Shown here: one piece after another, positions 11,188 to 18,875 of the stretch
Layout: every line of letters starts with the position of its first letter
How positions within the stretch are numbered: position 1 is the stretch's first letter
IMG/VR virus record: IMGVR_UViG_3300032006_000952
Span: 1 to 21,435 of that record
Source: a virus
Direction: 5' to 3' (one strand)
Length of the DNA stretch: 21,435 nucleotides
Translations under genes and position numbers: made by a program
Notes under the pieces: model-generated
The model's database searches: none
Told to the model about the DNA's origin: nothing
The model's input: only the letters and a program-made list of their open reading frames with translations

Positions 11188-11195
11188 TATTTATA
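11188..11195 (-). promoter_or_regulatory. T4-type late promoter for the giant virion gene
   Basis: The minus strand reads TATAAATA, identical to the T4 late promoter -10 element recognised by the gp55-type sigma factor with gp33 and the sliding clamp. It lies 39 bases before the ATG at 11148 and just after the stop of the oxygenase gene, in the only intergenic gap of this segment. Late transcription fits a structural gene. Confidence 0.75.
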
Positions 11196-11812: not shown

Positions 11813-11818
11813 AATTTA

Positions 11819-11892
11819 CGGGATTGACGAGGATCGAACTCGCAACTTCCTGCGTGACAGGCAGGTGCTCTAACCAGTTGAACTACAACCCC
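11819..11892 (-). tRNA. tRNA-Asp (anticodon GTC)
   Basis: A full cloverleaf can be drawn: acceptor GGGGTTG with CAATCCC (one G-U), D arm GTTC/GAGC, anticodon stem CCTGC/GCAGG around loop CTGTCAC, T arm GCGAG/CTCGT around TTCGATC, and discriminator G. The anticodon GTC reads GAC and GAT. No CCA is encoded. The 5' end is two bases after the end of tRNA-Thr. GAT is a frequent codon in the structural genes here, so the tRNA may help late translation (inference). Confidence 0.95.
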
Positions 11893-11894
11893 AA

Positions 11895-11966
11895 TGCCAT
11901 CAGACGGATTTGAACCGCCGACCTTGGCTTTACAAAAGCCCTGCACTACCGCTGTGCTATGATGGC
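11895..11966 (-). tRNA. tRNA-Thr (anticodon TGT)
   Basis: The acceptor arms GCCATCA and TGATGGC pair perfectly. The D arm is GCAC/GTGC, the anticodon loop is TTTGTAA (anticodon TGT, reading ACA), the T arm is GGCGG/CCGTC around TTCAAAT, and the discriminator is A. The outermost anticodon-stem pair is a G-A mismatch. No CCA is encoded. ACA is a preferred threonine codon in this AT-rich DNA. The first ten bases overlap the end of cpeT, including its stop codon. Confidence 0.93.
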
Positions 11967-12493
11967 TCAACTTTCTGCCTCTTAAACTCTAGGTGTCCAT
12001 AATTAGAACCCCATATTTTCTGTCCTGTGTCAACTGCTTTACCAATATCCATCACTTTCAACATATCTTCTGTTAATGTAATATCATTCTGAAGATATGT
12101 CTCTTTACCTTCCCATTCTACAAAACATTCACATCCTGTAGTACCTCCTTTAAATGACCCATCTGCCATTTTCTGAAATAACAAATCACAACCAGGACGA
12201 TATTTTAAATCGTCCTCTGTGATTTCATCTAGTTTTTGACCTCCAGCATACTTATCTAGATTACCAAGTAATTCGTGATTTCTTGTTCTAACAAAACCAT
12301 CTTCCAATACAACCTCAATTACATACTGTAAATAAGGTCTTTTCCTCATATAATTATATGCCTGTTCACCATAGTATCTATTATTACCCATTGGTTTATA
12401 GGTAATCCAAATATGTGCATATCTGGTAGGATGACACTGTGCTTGATATTTGTTAGAAAAAGTGCCTTCGATTAATTCTAGAAAATCTTCCAT
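11957..12493 (-). CDS. cpeT: CpeT-type phycobiliprotein chromophore lyase
   Basis: The 178-residue protein matches the CpcT/CpeT family from end to end. Family landmarks are FSNKYQAQ...PTRYAHIWI near the start, the segment YGEQAYNYM...PYLQYVIEV, LKYRPGCDLLF, the GSFKGGTTGCEC turn, ETYLQND and KIWGSNYGHLEFKR at the end. In cyanobacteria these proteins attach phycoerythrobilin or phycocyanobilin to a cysteine of a phycobiliprotein beta subunit. Cyanophages carry shorter versions as auxiliary metabolic genes, thought to act on host light harvesting or pigment handling during infection. The start ATG overlaps the previous stop as TAATG. The TAG stop lies inside the acceptor stem of tRNA-Thr. The assignment to the family is firm; activity in the phage context is inferred. 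Confidence 0.93.
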   Translation of the reverse strand: MEDFLELIEGTFSNKYQAQCHPTRYAHIWITYKPMGNNRYYGEQAYNYMRKRPYLQYVIEVVLEDGFVRTRNHELLGNLDKYAGGQKLDEITEDDLKYRPGCDLLFQKMADGSFKGGTTGCECFVEWEGKETYLQNDITLTEDMLKVMDIGKAVDTGQKIWGSNYGHLEFKRQKVEPS

Positions 12494-12682: not shown

Positions 12683-12711
12683 ATTATAGCATAAAAAAGG
12701 AGGGGTTGCAA
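12683..12711 (-). promoter_or_regulatory. Sigma70-type promoter overlapping a terminator
   Basis: On the minus strand, TTGCAA (12711-12706, four of six matches to TTGACA) is followed by exactly 17 bases and then a perfect TATAAT (12688-12683). Transcription would begin near 12676, shortly before the ribosome-binding site of the 55-aa gene. It would drive that gene, cpeT, both tRNAs and the oxygenase with the host-type RNA polymerase holoenzyme, as expected for early or middle expression. The -35 box lies within the hairpin of the terminator. Confidence 0.65.
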
Positions 12712-12722
12712 CCCCTCCTTTA
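12692..12722 (-). terminator. Intrinsic terminator of the beta-barrel-like gene
   Basis: A perfect palindrome at 12697-12720 (AAGGAGGGGTTG and its complement), extended by one A-T pair, forms a GC-rich hairpin. On the minus strand it is followed by TTTTTT. It starts about 20 bases after the TGA/TAA-type end of the gene at 12741. The plus strand has only a three-T tract, so the terminator acts on minus-strand transcripts. Confidence 0.9.
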
Positions 12723-12740: not shown

Positions 12741-13124
12741 TCAGAATGTGTACTTAGCACCGATTTTAGCACCCCAGTTAACTTGATCGTCACCAGATAC
12801 TTCGGCAGTGATGCCAGAAAGCTCACCGTATACACCTAGATCAGGTGTTGCAGCGACAGAAACGCCAACTTTTCCAGAGAATTCAGTCTCAGTGTCATCA
12901 GAAGAATCTGTATGAACGAATGAAGGACCGATTTGTGCATAGAAACCAGCAGTCTCTGTTAGAGAACCTTCGTATCCGATATGGATATCGCTAGTTGCTT
13001 CTGAATAATCTCCATCAGGATATGAAAGATTGCTTTCAACATTCACGTATGGACCAGCAAAAGCTGCACCAGCGAGAAGGAATGGAGATGCTGCAATCGC
13101 AGCGATTGTTGATTTGATAGACAT
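12741..13124 (-). CDS. Secreted beta-barrel-like (porin-like) protein with signal peptide
   Basis: The 127-residue protein begins with a clear Sec signal peptide: basic start MSIKS, hydrophobic core, and an AFA site, so cleavage is expected after A23. The mature part of about 104 residues alternates hydrophobic and polar residues in strand-like segments (for example GFYAQIGPSFV, GVYGELSGI, GAKIGAKYTF). It ends in phenylalanine, as do substrates of the BAM machinery for outer-membrane insertion. It is much shorter than a classical porin; about 6-8 strands would fit. It has its own promoter region and terminator, separate from the hub operon, and there is no Shine-Dalgarno sequence before ATG (the bases are A-rich). 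Placement in the host outer membrane is an inference; a periplasmic or virion role is possible. Confidence 0.8.
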   Translation of the reverse strand: MSIKSTIAAIAASPFLLAGAAFAGPYVNVESNLSYPDGDYSEATSDIHIGYEGSLTETAGFYAQIGPSFVHTDSSDDTETEFSGKVGVSVAATPDLGVYGELSGITAEVSGDDQVNWGAKIGAKYTF

Positions 13125-13321: not shown

Positions 13322-14290
13322 CTAGTTAAGGTTTATAGGAGTACCAGATATAGTTAATGGACCAGCAGACTTAAGATTCATCAATCCAGTCAATGCTTCT
13401 ATGTTAACAATACTACCTGTTACCTTGGCTTCTAACTTAGATGATAGAACATTTTTACCAGCAACAGAGTCAATCTTTATATTACCAAGCAATACATTAA
13501 TTGCTAAACCATTTGTTCTATTCTTAATAAGTTGTCCAGGTCCACCAGCAACCCCAATCTTAGCAGCACCAGCAGTTTCCACACGCCAATCTCCCAGATA
13601 TTTTTCATTACCAGCACCAACTCCAACAGTATTTGTAGATCCTCTAGGATCTAACTCATGTTTGGTATCCTCTCCAATAGATATAACTCTCTTCTGACCA
13701 AACCTTGTGGTACTCTTATTAGTATATAATTCTTCAATATCACCAGAAACTATGGTTAATGAACCACCACCATCTGCACCAGTAACAAGTTGAATACCTT
13801 GTCCTCTTATCTCAATATTTGAAGCATCTAAAATAATCTTCTCTGCTGTAATCATTTTAGTACCAACAACTTCCTCAACAGAGTCACCCCAAACATTAAT
13901 ATCTAATCCATCTGAATCATCTGGATCTTTCTTACCAGCATCAATTACAATACCACGCTCACCTTTAAGTCCTAGCATACCATCAGCTTTCATGCCAATG
14001 TTACCACTTCCCTTACCTAAACTCTTAGTTCTAGGTCCACTATGGAATATAAGCTGTCCTCTTTTAGTCCATACAATTCCTGTTCCACCTGGTCCACGAA
14101 TTTTAAAAGCATCAACCTCTCCATTAGGATATACTCTAAGGTATCCATAGGCAGGTGTATGACGGAACACATCAACAATTTTAAACCCACGATCTACATT
14201 CTGAGAAAAATCAGGGGTTATTTGATCGAATACACTGGTAGGTTGAACCTTAGCAGCTACCTCATTTGGATCATTGACAAGTGATGGCAT
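13322..14290 (-). CDS. Beta-helical tail spike/needle protein (gp5 C-terminal/VgrG-like)
   Basis: The 322-residue protein is dominated by short strand-turn repeats of the kind seen in trimeric beta-helical needles: GGVxIDAxNIEIRGQGIQL-type rungs around residues 145-175, and a C-terminal series (NIKIDSVAG, LEAKVTGSIVNIEALTG, LMNLKSAGPLTISGTPINLN). The N-terminal 60 residues (QITPDFSQNVDRGFKIVDVF) resemble a small folded attachment domain. I infer that it forms the membrane-piercing needle below the gp5-like protein, encoded by the gene just upstream. In T4 both parts are in one polypeptide. AGGAG lies seven bases before ATG, overlapping the end of the previous gene region. No PAAR tip gene is visible downstream. 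Function is inferred from repeat style and context. Confidence 0.7.
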   Translation of the reverse strand: MPSLVNDPNEVAAKVQPTSVFDQITPDFSQNVDRGFKIVDVFRHTPAYGYLRVYPNGEVDAFKIRGPGGTGIVWTKRGQLIFHSGPRTKSLGKGSGNIGMKADGMLGLKGERGIVIDAGKKDPDDSDGLDINVWGDSVEEVVGTKMITAEKIILDASNIEIRGQGIQLVTGADGGGSLTIVSGDIEELYTNKSTTRFGQKRVISIGEDTKHELDPRGSTNTVGVGAGNEKYLGDWRVETAGAAKIGVAGGPGQLIKNRTNGLAINVLLGNIKIDSVAGKNVLSSKLEAKVTGSIVNIEALTGLMNLKSAGPLTISGTPINLN

Positions 14291-14300
14291 AATTTATCTC

Positions 14301-17225
14301 CTATGGGCAGTCAATGTACTTACCTGTACCAATCTTAGTAGATCCAATCTCGGCAAGTTTCGTAGTAGGTAGACACTTGAAGTTAGGAATCCACTTAGCA
14401 GAATTTCCTCCTCCACCAATAATATAAACTTGAGGATGTCCAGACCATGTTGTTTCTCTATCAAGTACTCTCACACTAACAACTCTACCATCCTTAATGA
14501 CTGCTTCAGCAACATCATCTCTTCCATCAACATATACTGTAGGTGTTTCAAAGTATCCTCTACCAGGACGGATCATAGTAAATGAATCTATAATACACCT
14601 GACACCTGTATCTACTGGTTTGTTTAGTTTATATCCAAGTCCAGGAGTAGTAACTCTTATCTCAGTTACAAATCCATCACTATCAAGTAATGCTTCTCCA
14701 GTTGCACCATAACCCTGACCACTAATAACAACATAAGGTGGTTCTACATAAGGACTTCCTGGATTTGCAACAGGAATATCAATGAGTCCACCATCAGGAT
14801 CAGTAATAGGAGTCTCTGTAGTTGGTGGTGTTGGAGTATCTGGTACTGGAGTATCATCACCTACACCAATATCAAAGAATTCACTAGGTTTCTGACTTAC
14901 TATAACAACATCCTTACTTATTCCCTTTCCAGAAAGAGCAAATGTCATCTTCTCTTGAATCTCAATCTTAGCATCATCTTCTATACCAACAACTACAACT
15001 GCTGTATTAGCACTAATTGTAGCAGTTCCTGTTAACTGTCCACCAACAATATCTTCTTTTGTAATATTAGTACCAGAAATAATCCAAGAAACAATCTCAC
15101 CATTTGGTACATTAAGAGTTTCAATAGTAAAGACTACAAACTCACCTTCCTTAACTATATTCTTATCTGCTGTAAGTTTATAAAGAATAGCAAGAGGATC
15201 ATCAGTTTGTCCATCACCATCAAAATCTCCAATTACTTCTGGATCACTGTCCTCAGGGAATGCATCCAATCCTTGTAAAGGATTCTGTGTATTTGGTAAA
15301 TAAGGATCTGCTGGTTTAACTCCATCATCATCTGTAAAACCAGGTTCTTGTGTGTAATCTCTTTGTTTAATTGTACATATACCAATATTCTTTTCAAATG
15401 AAATAGAAGCAAGTGCTTCCTGATTTACTATATTATCTGGCGTTGCATTAGACAATACTAATTCAAACTTCTCTGCATTCTCAGTTATATCACCATCAGT
15501 TAATGTAAACACATCAACATCAGCAGTTATTTGACCTTCTTGGAATACTATGATACCTTCCTTAGGAAGATAGTCAAGATTAGCAATTGCCGTGTCTTCT
15601 GAATCTGAATCTCTAGTCTTATAACTTATAGATGATGTCTTAGTTGTGTTTCCAGATCTGGTTATTACAAACTTAGCTACATCACCTTCTGCTACCTTTG
15701 GATCAGTTACGGTGTATATAATTTCATTATAATTTTTATCTGCACTAGGTTTGTATATTCCACCAACAAAACCTATATTTGTATTCTTTAACGGTGCTCC
15801 TTTATATGCATCATTACAAGTATAGATCTGATTATCAAATCCACTATTAGGAGCTATATCATCAATATTACTATCTAAATCATCTAACAACTTGTCAAGG
15901 AAATTCTTAGTATCTTCTTCTTCCTTCTTCTGTTCATCTCCCTGTAAGCAGATCTGTCTTGCATTAGCACATGTTCTATCACCACCAGTACATGTGATTC
16001 CAAGTAGTGAAAGAATTCTGTTGATTGCACTACCAATTAAATTTAAAGCATCAGCAATTGGTCCAAGCAACTTACTAATAAATCCTAATATATCACCAAG
16101 TAACTCATCCATGAATGATTGGATCTTATTGATAATACCACTAACAAGTAAATCCACTTGACAAATTGCATTCCTATAGATCTCTTGTACATATCCCATC
16201 AATAGATCTGTAAGGAACTTGGCAATTCTCTCTCCAATATCTTCTATAGAACAACCCAACTTCTTGAGCATCTTATTGAAGAACTCTGTAATAGGTGTTA
16301 AAGCATTACCATTATCATCCTGTCTCAATACTGCTTTTACCAAAGCATCAACTGCTTCTTTTAATTTACCAATAATAATTCCTTTAACCTTTGCAAGGAA
16401 TTTCCTAACAAGTGAGATCATCTTCCTGATATACTTTCTAGCAATATCAGTAGCATCACCAACTCCACCAGTTGCTTTGTGTATTAAAGCTGTACCTATC
16501 TTACCATCATTGCGTTGGATCTCAGCAAGCATATCACCAAGAAGTATTGATGAATTTTCAGCAAAAGATGATTCTTTACCACAACGATCTGGAAGAGAAA
16601 GACATATTTCTTCTTGTGCTAAATCTTCTGTGACATTAAGAGGAACTCCTGCTTCGCAAGCATCATCAGCTTTACCTGTTACCTCATTTTGATCATTACC
16701 AGTTAAATTTTGACCTGCTTCACCAGTTGATATTTCTCCTGATTCAACTTGTCCACATTTTACAGTTCCAGTACCATCTTCATATTCATTGTGCTCAGGA
16801 CTTTGTGGTTGCGTTGGTGAGATAGTTGTAAACGATTGACATTCATTAGGATTATATTCGTTAACTACACCAGTTGCTCCAGGAACTTGTCCGATAGCAC
16901 CCATGATAATTGGTTTCTGTCTATCTGGATCCATATAGAATCCAATGACCCAACATCCAACATAAAGCTTTGGAATTCCATTAACCTTTCCACCTGCTGA
17001 CATTGGGTTGTCAACAGGCATTAACACCTGAGCCCACGGTAAATCATCTTTACTGACTATATCGCAGCTCTGTGTATGTTCGCCAACGATTCTTACCTTA
17101 TATCGGTAATTACCTTTGACTTTTCTGTACTTGTCACTTTTATCTTCGACCTGGCCAATCCACCATTGAAATCCATCGGATCCAATCTTATAAGATGGCA
17201 ATAATCGTGACAGTGATTCATCCAT
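14301..17225 (-). CDS. gp5-like baseplate hub/spike protein with Calx-beta domains, no visible lysozyme
   Basis: Residues 18-112 match the N-terminal OB-fold of T4 gp5 (WWIGQVEDKSD, YRYKVRIVGEH, LPWAQVLMPV, GCWVIGFYMD, PIIMGAIG), the part that sits on the gp27 trimer. The T4 protein then has a lysozyme domain; here no lysozyme motif is seen. Residues 225-410 are instead amphipathic helices rich in I, L and K. A typical Calx-beta domain follows at about 498-595 (TDPKVAEGDVAKFVITRSG, DYLPKEGIIVFQEGQ, TENAEKFELVL). Then come an Asp-rich loop DFDGDGQTDDP (667-677), a second Calx-beta-like domain (681-770), a Pro/Thr linker and a Gly/Tyr-rich C-terminus. At 974 aa it is far longer than T4 gp5 (575 aa), and rich in cysteine. 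The start overlaps the CP12-like stop (TAATG). The OB-fold assignment is firm; the roles of the added domains are inferred. Confidence 0.82.
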   Translation of the reverse strand: MDESLSRLLPSYKIGSDGFQWWIGQVEDKSDKYRKVKGNYRYKVRIVGEHTQSCDIVSKDDLPWAQVLMPVDNPMSAGGKVNGIPKLYVGCWVIGFYMDPDRQKPIIMGAIGQVPGATGVVNEYNPNECQSFTTISPTQPQSPEHNEYEDGTGTVKCGQVESGEISTGEAGQNLTGNDQNEVTGKADDACEAGVPLNVTEDLAQEEICLSLPDRCGKESSFAENSSILLGDMLAEIQRNDGKIGTALIHKATGGVGDATDIARKYIRKMISLVRKFLAKVKGIIIGKLKEAVDALVKAVLRQDDNGNALTPITEFFNKMLKKLGCSIEDIGERIAKFLTDLLMGYVQEIYRNAICQVDLLVSGIINKIQSFMDELLGDILGFISKLLGPIADALNLIGSAINRILSLLGITCTGGDRTCANARQICLQGDEQKKEEEDTKNFLDKLLDDLDSNIDDIAPNSGFDNQIYTCNDAYKGAPLKNTNIGFVGGIYKPSADKNYNEIIYTVTDPKVAEGDVAKFVITRSGNTTKTSSISYKTRDSDSEDTAIANLDYLPKEGIIVFQEGQITADVDVFTLTDGDITENAEKFELVLSNATPDNIVNQEALASISFEKNIGICTIKQRDYTQEPGFTDDDGVKPADPYLPNTQNPLQGLDAFPEDSDPEVIGDFDGDGQTDDPLAILYKLTADKNIVKEGEFVVFTIETLNVPNGEIVSWIISGTNITKEDIVGGQLTGTATISANTAVVVVGIEDDAKIEIQEKMTFALSGKGISKDVVIVSQKPSEFFDIGVGDDTPVPDTPTPPTTETPITDPDGGLIDIPVANPGSPYVEPPYVVISGQGYGATGEALLDSDGFVTEIRVTTPGLGYKLNKPVDTGVRCIIDSFTMIRPGRGYFETPTVYVDGRDDVAEAVIKDGRVVSVRVLDRETTWSGHPQVYIIGGGGNSAKWIPNFKCLPTTKLAEIGSTKIGTGKYIDCP

Positions 17226-17452
17226 TAGTCGTCATAAATCAAACATTCTGGTTCATCTGGATGTTGATCACAAAAGAGTTCAATAGTATTAGGATCATGG
17301 TGGTCACCTGCTTCTATCTCATCTTTATGATGCTCAACATATTCTTCTAGATCATGCAACTCATCCTTAATGTGCCGTCTAGCAGCAGGATTAGTTGTAG
17401 GATCGTCAAGGATCTCTTTATCTTTAGCAATGTGCTTTTCTATACTTTCCAT
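17225..17452 (-). CDS. CP12-like small protein
   Basis: The 75-residue acidic, helical protein ends with IELFCDQHPDEPECLIYDD. The two cysteines (C61 and C70) are spaced C-x8-C and followed by a YDD end, as in the GAPDH-binding tail of the cyanobacterial Calvin-cycle inhibitor CP12 (C-x8-C then YD/ED). The upstream helix RRHIKDELHDLEEYVEHHKDE lies where CP12 has its AWD-VEEL core, but the core is not conserved and the N-terminal cysteine pair is missing. Marine cyanophages carry cp12 as an auxiliary metabolic gene, thought to shut down carbon fixation by linking GAPDH and PRK. GGGAGG lies 11 bases before the ATG. It sits between the gp27-like and gp5-like genes, which is an odd place for a metabolic gene, so a baseplate-associated role cannot be excluded. 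Confidence 0.6.
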   Translation of the reverse strand: MESIEKHIAKDKEILDDPTTNPAARRHIKDELHDLEEYVEHHKDEIEAGDHHDPNTIELFCDQHPDEPECLIYDD

Positions 17453-17486
17453 ATTAGAGGATACCTCCCGTCACTTTATTTATTTA

Positions 17487-18875
17487 CTAATCAACATCGC
17501 CACTGTAGGCATCCCTACACAAACGAAGTGTTGTATGGAATATACCGCTAGTACCTTTCATTCTATCAAATTCATGAGTGACCTCACTTATTAGATAAAC
17601 TCCGCTACTTTCACGATCCCAAGGTTCAGACCTTGCCTCAACATCAGGAACTTTATTCCGTATCTTTATTTTAACACGGTCACCAGCACATATCTGCGAA
17701 TTTCCAGGAATCACAACAGTACACTCTTGATTTTGTAGCGTAGAATACCTAGACAAAGATTGTGCTGCAAAGTATTTCTGCCAATCAGCATAAGGTGCAG
17801 GAGCCTTAGATCCTGCCTCTGGATCTGGATCACCTGGAGTAGGTCCAGAGAACCAAGTCTCACTATCCAAAATAGTTGACAATACTCTACTAGGAGACTT
17901 AAAGTTCATATTATTACCTTCTGGTATCCTAAAATCTGCTCCTCCAAGATGATCCATTTTCTCATATGATTTTTCTAAATCAAAATTATACTCATCATAT
18001 TGACCACTAGAAGGATTAAAGAATACCATTAGATTTGAATACTTACCAACTCTAAGATCAGTCATCACATCTGTCTCTGATTTAAACTTAACTTGAATAA
18101 GTTTTAATTGATTTCCTCCAGTTTCATTATTTGCTGATGACTCCTCATAATCTCCCCAAGGTGGTCTATCATCATCTTCTTTACATAAAGAATCTACTGA
18201 ATAAAAATTATATCCTTTATAAGATTCCCAGAAGAAATACCCTGCTGTACCTTCAATATTAGCTGTTGCTTCATCATTAGTTAATGAAGTTATTGAACTC
18301 TCTGTACCATCACCCCATTTCTTCTGTTGAGGTATTGTCTTATTAGTCAACATATTAGCAATATCAAATGGTCTCTTCCGATTACCAAGTAATTTCATCT
18401 GGAACTGAGAAGGATCAGAAGCAAAGTTTTTAGTAGATCCCAATAAATTCTTTATCAACTGTTCATGAATTATCTGTTCTGCTGTACCTTCTAGTGGCAC
18501 ATTAACTCTTGTAGCTTCATTAATCATTGCTTCTCTAGAAACTAAAGCTAATGTATAATGTGACTTTTTATCTTTAACATATCTATTTGCTACCTTCCAA
18601 ACATGCATAACATAAGTGTTACCTTCGGTAGAAGTTCCATCCTGTATAACATCTTCAGTTGTAAGTTCTACCTTCTCTCCACCAACAAATCCAATCTTAT
18701 TGAATAATTGAACACCATCAACAATAAAAAGAGTTCCTACAACAAAAGGACTTGTAATCTTCTCTGAATAGTTAAAGGTAAAAGATTGTGGTAATATATT
18801 ATGAACTTGATTCTTTTTATCTGTAAGAGAACAACTTTTAAACTTAAAAGTCCTTGAGGTTTGTAAATCTGCCAT
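17487..18875 (-). CDS. gp27-like baseplate hub protein
   Basis: The 462-residue protein begins with a domain containing SCSLTDKKNQVHNILPQSFT and GTLFIVDGVQLFNKI. It continues with an ILxSETWF-type central part and ends with a beta-rich domain (CTVVIPGNSQICAGDRVKIK around 395-415, then SGVYLISEVTHEFDRMKGTSG and LRLCRDAYS). This C-terminal pattern, an oil-drop of strands with a GD-V-K-I motif followed by YLISEV-H-F, is typical of gp27/gpD-type hub proteins, which form a trimeric ring between tail tube and gp5. The length is near T4 gp27 (391 aa). Position fits: it is directly upstream of the gp5-like gene. The start overlaps the previous stop (TAATG) with AGGAG at 18885-18889. The hub role is likely; homology is judged by eye. 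Confidence 0.75.
   Translation of the reverse strand: MADLQTSRTFKFKSCSLTDKKNQVHNILPQSFTFNYSEKITSPFVVGTLFIVDGVQLFNKIGFVGGEKVELTTEDVIQDGTSTEGNTYVMHVWKVANRYVKDKKSHYTLALVSREAMINEATRVNVPLEGTAEQIIHEQLIKNLLGSTKNFASDPSQFQMKLLGNRKRPFDIANMLTNKTIPQQKKWGDGTESSITSLTNDEATANIEGTAGYFFWESYKGYNFYSVDSLCKEDDDRPPWGDYEESSANNETGGNQLKLIQVKFKSETDVMTDLRVGKYSNLMVFFNPSSGQYDEYNFDLEKSYEKMDHLGGADFRIPEGNNMNFKSPSRVLSTILDSETWFSGPTPGDPDPEAGSKAPAPYADWQKYFAAQSLSRYSTLQNQECTVVIPGNSQICAGDRVKIKIRNKVPDVEARSEPWDRESSGVYLISEVTHEFDRMKGTSGIFHTTLRLCRDAYSGDVD

What the first reader, a model, noticed from the sequence alone, without database searches (positions are those of the whole stretch)
17225..17452. CP12-like metabolic regulator placed between baseplate hub and spike genes
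A 75-aa protein with a C-x8-C tail and YDD end, as in CP12, is coupled by a TAATG overlap to the gp5-like spike gene and lies 34 bases after the gp27-like gene. Auxiliary metabolic genes would be expected early in infection, but this location would make it late and stoichiometric with tail proteins. Either CP12 acts late, or the protein has been recruited as a virion or assembly factor, or its GAPDH-binding tail serves another partner. The AWD-VEEL core and first cysteine pair are absent, so it could bind GAPDH but not PRK.
Basis: partly seen in the sequence, partly recalled or inferred. Interest (0 to 1): 0.7.

Follow-up and report, generated by a model that had tools for sequence, protein, structure and literature searches.

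The report
Ordinary cyanophage CP12 in baseplate operon
The small gene between two tail-baseplate genes is a real CP12, a well-known cyanophage protein thought to switch off host carbon fixation, and this is its commonest place in these phages, so the position is ordinary, although the late-type promoter just in front of it makes the timing of its action worth testing.

Summary
The minus strand at 17452-17225 encodes a 75-aa CP12 (Pfam CP12, 46.4 bits, cut-off 22.7), 34 nt after a gp27-like hub gene and joined by TAATG to a gp5-like gene. It is not surprising. At least 363 phage records carry a near-full-length homologue. In 105 of 133 non-redundant contexts cp12 directly follows the gp27-like gene, as in Syn9, Syn19, S-SM2, S-RSM4, Bellamy and P-RSM6. 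P-HM2 shows the empty gp27-TAATG-gp5 site, its cp12 lying far away. CP12s from different positions intermingle on the tree and keep the same GAPDH-binding tail, so a hub-specific virion role is unsupported. The missing N-terminal cysteines and AWD core are also missing in all 35 distinct host CP12s examined, so they are inherited. New here: an NATAAATA late-type promoter element lies 30 nt before the start codon; TAAATA occurs upstream of cp12 in 90 of 133 contexts (about 13 expected), nearly always 24-34 nt before ATG, whatever the position. This supports middle-to-late expression, but P-HM2 cp12 is middle-class and a review reports Syn9 cp12 as early. Best reading: a normal Calvin-cycle inhibitor, wired to a late-type promoter and parked in the hub operon.

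The parts
17225..17452 (-). cp12, 75-aa CP12 protein of the C-terminal-cysteine-only type
   Evidence: Pfam CP12 46.4 bits (cut-off 22.7), PHROG 627; 370 phage records match, 363 over at least 80% of the query.
17228..17272 (-). codons of the C-terminal C-x8-C...YDD tail (residues C61 to D75), the part that binds GAPDH in solved CP12 complexes
   Evidence: CxxxPxxxxC tail conserved in 132 of 133 non-redundant phage copies and all 35 distinct host CP12s; weak sequence match to CP12 chains of GAPDH complexes.
17477..17484 (-). NATAAATA late-promoter element 30 nt upstream of the cp12 start
   Evidence: Only 3 ATAAATA in the window (9.3 expected), all on the minus strand; two lie within about 130 nt upstream of a gene start in the window. 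The element is enriched at fixed spacing upstream of cp12 in relatives.
17463..17469 (-). Shine-Dalgarno-like GGGAGGT, 10 nt before the cp12 start
   Evidence: Read directly from sequence; inferred function.
17487..18875 (-). gp27-like baseplate hub protein (462 aa, PHROG 350 / T4-GC15)
   Evidence: AlphaFold model (pLDDT 79) matches T4 gp27, Foldseek E about 1e-17.
14301..17225 (-). gp5-like hub/spike protein (974 aa, PHROG 1922, with a Calx-beta domain), translationally coupled to cp12 by TAATG
13322..14290 (-). second hub/lysozyme-like protein (PHROG 4540), end of the cp12-gp5 unit
11957..12493 (-). CpeT-like antenna auxiliary gene, a frequent companion of cp12 near gp5
   Evidence: Pfam CpeT E 1.4e-33; adjacent to cp12 in Syn19 and Syn9.

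Best explanation
The gene encodes an ordinary cyanophage CP12, acquired from a picocyanobacterial host lineage and long resident in the baseplate-hub operon. The protein is predicted to act as host CP12 does: its C-terminal disulfide loop and YDD end bind host GAPDH (possibly bringing in PRK) and stop the NADPH- and ATP-consuming steps of the Calvin cycle, freeing reducing power for nucleotide synthesis. Shown here: identity, conserved tail, conserved site, and a late-type promoter element at fixed distance. Inferred: that this element (recognised by the phage late sigma factor gp55) drives cp12 together with gp5, so that expression runs from the middle into the late phase. GAPDH binding is inferred from homology. 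The hub position is most likely a tolerated insertion site in a co-directional operon, not a sign of a virion role.
For: Pfam and PHROG matches; 370 phage records. Same place in S-SM2, Syn19, ACG-2014e, S-H9-1, S-RSM4, Syn9, P-RSM6 and Bellamy and in 105 of 133 non-redundant contexts. Empty site in P-HM2, where gp27 and gp5 meet at the same TAATG, its cp12 lying far away at about 177.3 kb with the P-HM1-type upstream sequence; P-HM1 cp12 abuts talC. TAAATA upstream of 90 of 133 cp12 genes, about 13 expected from shuffles, in all position classes, 88 of 92 sites 24-34 nt before ATG. In Syn9 the same motif precedes mostly virion genes, 13 of 30 sites upstream of a start against 1.2 expected. Literature: P-HM2 cp12 highly expressed in light infection (PMC5082946); infection with S-RSM4, whose cp12 is in the hub, stops host carbon fixation about 2 h earlier than infection with S-PM2, which lacks cp12 (PMC10665884, PMC10452541; S-RSM4 also carries talC, gnd and zwf).
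Against: No experiment on this phage. RNA-seq put P-HM2 cp12 in the middle class, not late (PMC5082946), but its promoter also has a TTGACA box that the window lacks. A review says Syn9 cp12 is co-expressed early (PMC6359870) although it sits in the hub behind the late-type motif. 43 of 105 hub copies have no TAAATA within 70 nt and would have to be read through from upstream. The PDB sequence matches are weak (best E 0.004) and the fold comparison is inconclusive.
Confidence: 0.85

Rival explanations
1. CP12 has been recruited as a virion or hub-assembly factor, made in step with gp27 and gp5 and perhaps packaged.
For: Tight coupling to gp5 by TAATG; promoter element of the type found before virion genes; most common position is between hub genes.
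Against: 28 of 133 contexts were not scored as directly after gp27, six of them beside talC, and these copies intermingle on the tree with hub copies and keep the same tail. P-HM2 has hub genes with nothing between and S-PM2 has no cp12 (PMC3037559). In Sullivan 2010, which merged three virion proteomes, CP12 is listed under carbon metabolism and the neighbours gp5 and T4-GC15 are named as virion proteins; CP12 is not named, but the full table S8 could not be read.
Confidence: 0.04
2. The hub position makes cp12 a strictly late gene whose job is late in infection, for example shutting residual carbon fixation during assembly.
For: NATAAATA at 30 nt, no sigma-70-like site scored near the gene on its strand, sigma-70-like sites not enriched upstream of hub cp12 (16 observed, 14.4 expected), read-through from a hub operon.
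Against: P-HM2 cp12 carries the same element yet is middle-class (PMC5082946); Syn9 cp12, hub-located, is reported as co-expressed early (PMC6359870, a secondary source). Published work suggests middle expression can come from overlapping early and late promoters (PMC2984593).
Confidence: 0.3
3. CP12-like resemblance only: the tail serves another partner than GAPDH.
For: AWD core and N-terminal cysteines missing; PDB sequence matches weak.
Against: All 35 distinct host picocyanobacterial CP12s examined lack them too; the C-x8-C/YDD tail is conserved in 132 of 133 phage copies; Pfam score is twice the cut-off.
Confidence: 0.04

Closest known systems
cp12 of cyanophages Syn9 (gp17), Syn19, S-SM2, S-RSM4, P-RSM6, Bellamy
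   Same: Same protein family and the same slot right after the gp27-like tail protein; in S-SM2 and Bellamy the annotated coordinates show the same one-base overlap with gp5.
   Different: At most 83% identical to this one; in Syn9 and Syn19 a CpeT gene, and in P-RSM6 a 2OG oxygenase plus CpeT, stand between cp12 and gp5; S-SM2 has no TAAATA scored upstream of cp12 itself.
cp12 of cyanophages P-HM1 and P-HM2
   Same: Same family, tail motif and ATAAATA element 30 nt before the start.
   Different: In P-HM1 placed next to talC near psbA, in P-HM2 also far from the hub genes; both with TTGACA fused to the late element; 70 aa in P-HM1, lacking a 5-residue linker.
CP12 of Prochlorococcus and marine Synechococcus
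   Same: Same C-terminal tail; also lacks N-terminal cysteine pair and AWD core.
   Different: Host proteins form one separate clade; most are 72 aa with a shorter linker such as HHPEDKHDP instead of HHKDEIEAGDHHDP.
Canonical CP12 of plants and other cyanobacteria (e.g. T. elongatus, PDB 6gfo/6gve)
   Same: C-terminal C-x8-C and YDD-type end.
   Different: Canonical form has an N-terminal cysteine pair and AWD_VEEL core, both absent here.

Membership tests
CP12 domain family (Pfam PF02672) | Profile score above the curated cut-off over the domain | tested here: met
   46.4 bits against 22.7, residues 2-74 on profile positions 3-70 of 70.
CP12 domain family (Pfam PF02672) | C-terminal CxxxPxxxxC pair and Tyr-acid-acid end | tested here: met
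   C61-x3-P65-x4-C70, end YDD; conserved in 132 of 133 phage copies and 35 of 35 hosts.
CP12 domain family (Pfam PF02672) | Structure like solved CP12 in GAPDH complexes | tested here: inconclusive
   Confident helical model (pLDDT 92); 6gfo_E aligned over 66 residues at Z 4.2, not above unrelated rows.
CP12 domain family (Pfam PF02672) | Binds and inhibits GAPDH | not testable with these tools
   Complex prediction and biochemistry not available.
Canonical (N/C) CP12 | N-terminal cysteine pair | tested here: not met
   No cysteine before C61; no phage or host copy examined has two cysteines in the first 45 residues.
Canonical (N/C) CP12 | AWD_VEEL core | tested here: not met
   Absent here, in 133 phage copies and in 35 distinct host CP12s.
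Cyanophage cp12 auxiliary metabolic genes | Single copy in a T4-like cyanophage genome, host-type CP12 homologue | tested here: met
   One match each in ten complete named phage genomes and in the window; neighbours are T4-like baseplate genes. The window itself is a 21-kb fragment.
Phage virion/hub structural proteins | Present in purified virions and tied to the hub operon in all relatives | tested here: inconclusive
   Operon linkage is not universal: 28 of 133 contexts not directly after gp27. Virion content could not be tested; Sullivan 2010 text does not name CP12 among virion proteins.

The most novel reading that the evidence does not exclude
CP12 made with the hub proteins is carried in the virion and injected with the DNA, so that it blocks host GAPDH at once, before any phage gene is expressed.
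Probability: 0.03. Interest if true: 0.85.

Novelty: new member of a known kind. Interest (0 to 1): 0.3.

Why it matters
CP12 is one of the ways cyanophages are thought to halt carbon fixation in abundant ocean photosynthesisers, so when it is made during infection bears on the carbon budget of infected cells. The result here turns a supposed oddity into a simple test: most sampled cyanophages place cp12 in a virion operon, usually behind a late-type promoter, while the phage whose cp12 timing was measured by RNA-seq (P-HM2) has an extra sigma-70 -35 box at a different locus. Comparing the two arrangements would show whether Calvin-cycle shut-off is timed differently among phages.

Tried and rejected
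Pfam had no hit for the gp27-like protein, so its identity was tested by structure prediction and confirmed. Foldseek with the CP12 model gave no significant match (best E 3.1), expected for a 75-residue helical, conditionally disordered protein; the VIA second look did include a GAPDH-bound CP12 (6gfo_E) but not above unrelated rows. A first genome-contig scan with the S-RSM4 protein found nothing; the alignment query then found 13 loci, some of them phage-like contigs filed under odd organisms. Sigma-70 promoter enrichment upstream of hub cp12 was tested and not found. Thompson 2011 (PMC3182688) and doi 10.1038/ismej.2015.210 (taken from memory as the Syn9 transcriptome paper) are not held, so Syn9 timing rests on a review. 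The CP12 tree has only 75 columns, so counts of moves between positions are rough. The share of hub copies is probably a lower bound, since a few copies scored 'other' have gp5 directly downstream (L201, L305, L317).

Full report
What is there. On the minus strand, 17452-17225 encodes a 75-residue protein. It follows a 462-aa gene by 34 nt and its stop codon shares one base with the start of a 974-aa gene, TAATG. The protein scores 46.4 bits against Pfam CP12 (cut-off 22.7) and belongs to PHROG 627. The upstream neighbour is gp27-like: its predicted structure matches T4 gp27 with Foldseek E about 1e-17. The downstream neighbour is gp5-like by PHROG 1922 and by a near-threshold Gp5_OB match.

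How unusual is the place. A tblastn search found a match in 370 phage records, 363 covering at least 80% of the protein. In S-SM2, Syn19, ACG-2014e, S-H9-1, S-RSM4, Syn9, P-RSM6 and Bellamy the gene follows the same gp27-like gene. In S-SM2 and Bellamy the annotated coordinates of cp12 and gp5 overlap by one base, as in the window. Across viral contigs and phage records, after removing near-duplicates, 105 of 133 contexts have cp12 directly after the gp27-like gene, 6 have it next to talC and 22 elsewhere. Of the hub-located copies with enough downstream sequence, gp5 is next in 70 and CpeT in 19. P-HM2 shows the empty site: its gp27-like and gp5 genes meet at TAATG with nothing between, while its cp12 lies at about 177.3 kb with nearly the same upstream sequence as in P-HM1, where cp12 abuts talC. 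Sullivan 2010 (PMC3037559) already stated that cp12 occurs near gp5 or near psbA.

Is it a different protein in the hub. A tree of 125 phage and 35 host CP12s separates host from phage with full support, but copies from the hub, from beside talC and from elsewhere are intermingled, and supported branches force at least 12 changes of the hub label (few columns, so rough). The C-terminal CxxxPxxxxC..Y tail is intact in 104 of 105 hub copies, 6 of 6 talC copies and 22 of 22 others. Nothing marks the hub copies as a separate functional class. S-PM2 lacks cp12 (PMC3037559), and P-HM2 has hub genes without cp12 between them, so the hub does not need it. The virion-factor idea is therefore unlikely, though virion content was not testable here.

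The missing motifs. All 35 distinct CP12s taken from picocyanobacterial genomes lack both. The trait is thus shared with, and probably inherited from, the hosts. [quoted passage not shown] elongatus PCC 7942 and Galdieria (PMC9406205), and that cyanophage CP12s resemble the C-terminal region of CP12 (PMC3906501). The PRK question is open and cannot be settled from the missing motif.

Promoter and timing. The 34-nt gap holds AATAAATA on the coding strand (17484-17477), 30 nt before ATG, and a GGGAGGT ribosome-binding site. NATAAATA is the late promoter sequence described for S-PM2 and found in other cyanomyoviruses (PMC2984593). The window holds only three ATAAATA against 9.3 expected, all on the coding strand: one before cp12, one about 130 nt before the outer-membrane-protein gene at 13124, and one at 11188-11194, just past the last ORF examined, whose downstream gene was not worked out. 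Across relatives, TAAATA occurs within 70 nt upstream of cp12 in 62 of 105 hub copies (8.8 expected from dinucleotide shuffles), 6 of 6 talC-side copies and 22 of 22 others, and 88 of 92 such sites lie 24-34 nt before ATG. In Syn9 the same motif precedes mostly virion genes at the same spacing (gp4, gp26, fibres, tail-fibre assembly): 13 of 30 sites lie upstream of a start against 1.2 expected. Sigma-70-like sites are not enriched upstream of hub cp12, and none was scored near the window gene on its strand. The late-type wiring of cp12 is thus well supported as sequence. It does not prove late-only expression. P-HM2 cp12 has the same element 30 nt upstream, fused to TTGACA, and was placed in the middle class by RNA-seq (PMC5082946). 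A review reports that Syn9 cp12, which sits in the hub, is co-expressed early with other metabolic genes (PMC6359870; the primary paper was not available). Overlapping early and late promoters have been proposed as the source of middle expression in these phages (PMC2984593). My reading is expression from the middle into the late phase, unproven for this phage.

Mechanism. The most likely function is the known one: the tail of CP12 engages GAPDH and damps the Calvin cycle so that photosynthetic ATP and NADPH go to phage nucleotides. This rests on homology, on the conserved tail and on published physiology: infection by S-RSM4, which has a hub-located cp12 as well as talC, zwf and gnd, stops carbon fixation earlier than infection by S-PM2, which lacks these genes (PMC10665884, PMC10452541). 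Because several genes differ, that comparison does not isolate cp12.

Verdict. A real CP12 at its usual place. The finding is a new member of a known kind. The useful residue is the fixed late-type promoter element and the contrast with P-HM2, which make the timing of Calvin-cycle shut-off testable.

Noticed in passing
L102:3001-3234: A Prochlorococcus chromosome (AG-402-N21, with obgE-like and mutS2-like neighbours) carries a 77-aa CP12 with the phage-type linker KEEIEAGDHHDP that nearly all other host CP12s examined lack, suggesting phage-host exchange of cp12 or loss of the linker in other hosts.
   Followed up: partly
L097:3001-3225: A 189-kb contig filed under Prochlorococcus single cell AG-418-C09 carries a phage-type cp12 and may be a phage genome from an infected cell; phage-like cp12 contigs are also filed under MAGs of Euryarchaeota, Rhodopirellula and Anaerolineales and under Nonlabens.
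   Followed up: no
L132:7200-7300: P-HM2 cp12 promoter reads TTGACATAAATA, an early -35 box fused to the late element, also in P-HM1; it fits the overlapping early/late promoter model for middle genes.
   Followed up: partly
window 14301-17225: The gp5-like protein carries a Calx-beta domain (Pfam E 7e-10) in its middle, and a second hub/lysozyme-like gene (13322-14290) follows it.
   Followed up: no
window 11818-11966: tRNA-Asp and tRNA-Thr genes in tandem between the CpeT-like and 2OG oxygenase genes; other cyanophages also carry tRNAs in this region.
   Followed up: no
window 12696-12721: Strong terminator-like hairpin (11 pairs) followed by a T run, just after the outer-membrane-protein gene; it overlaps the start of the next ORF.
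   Followed up: no
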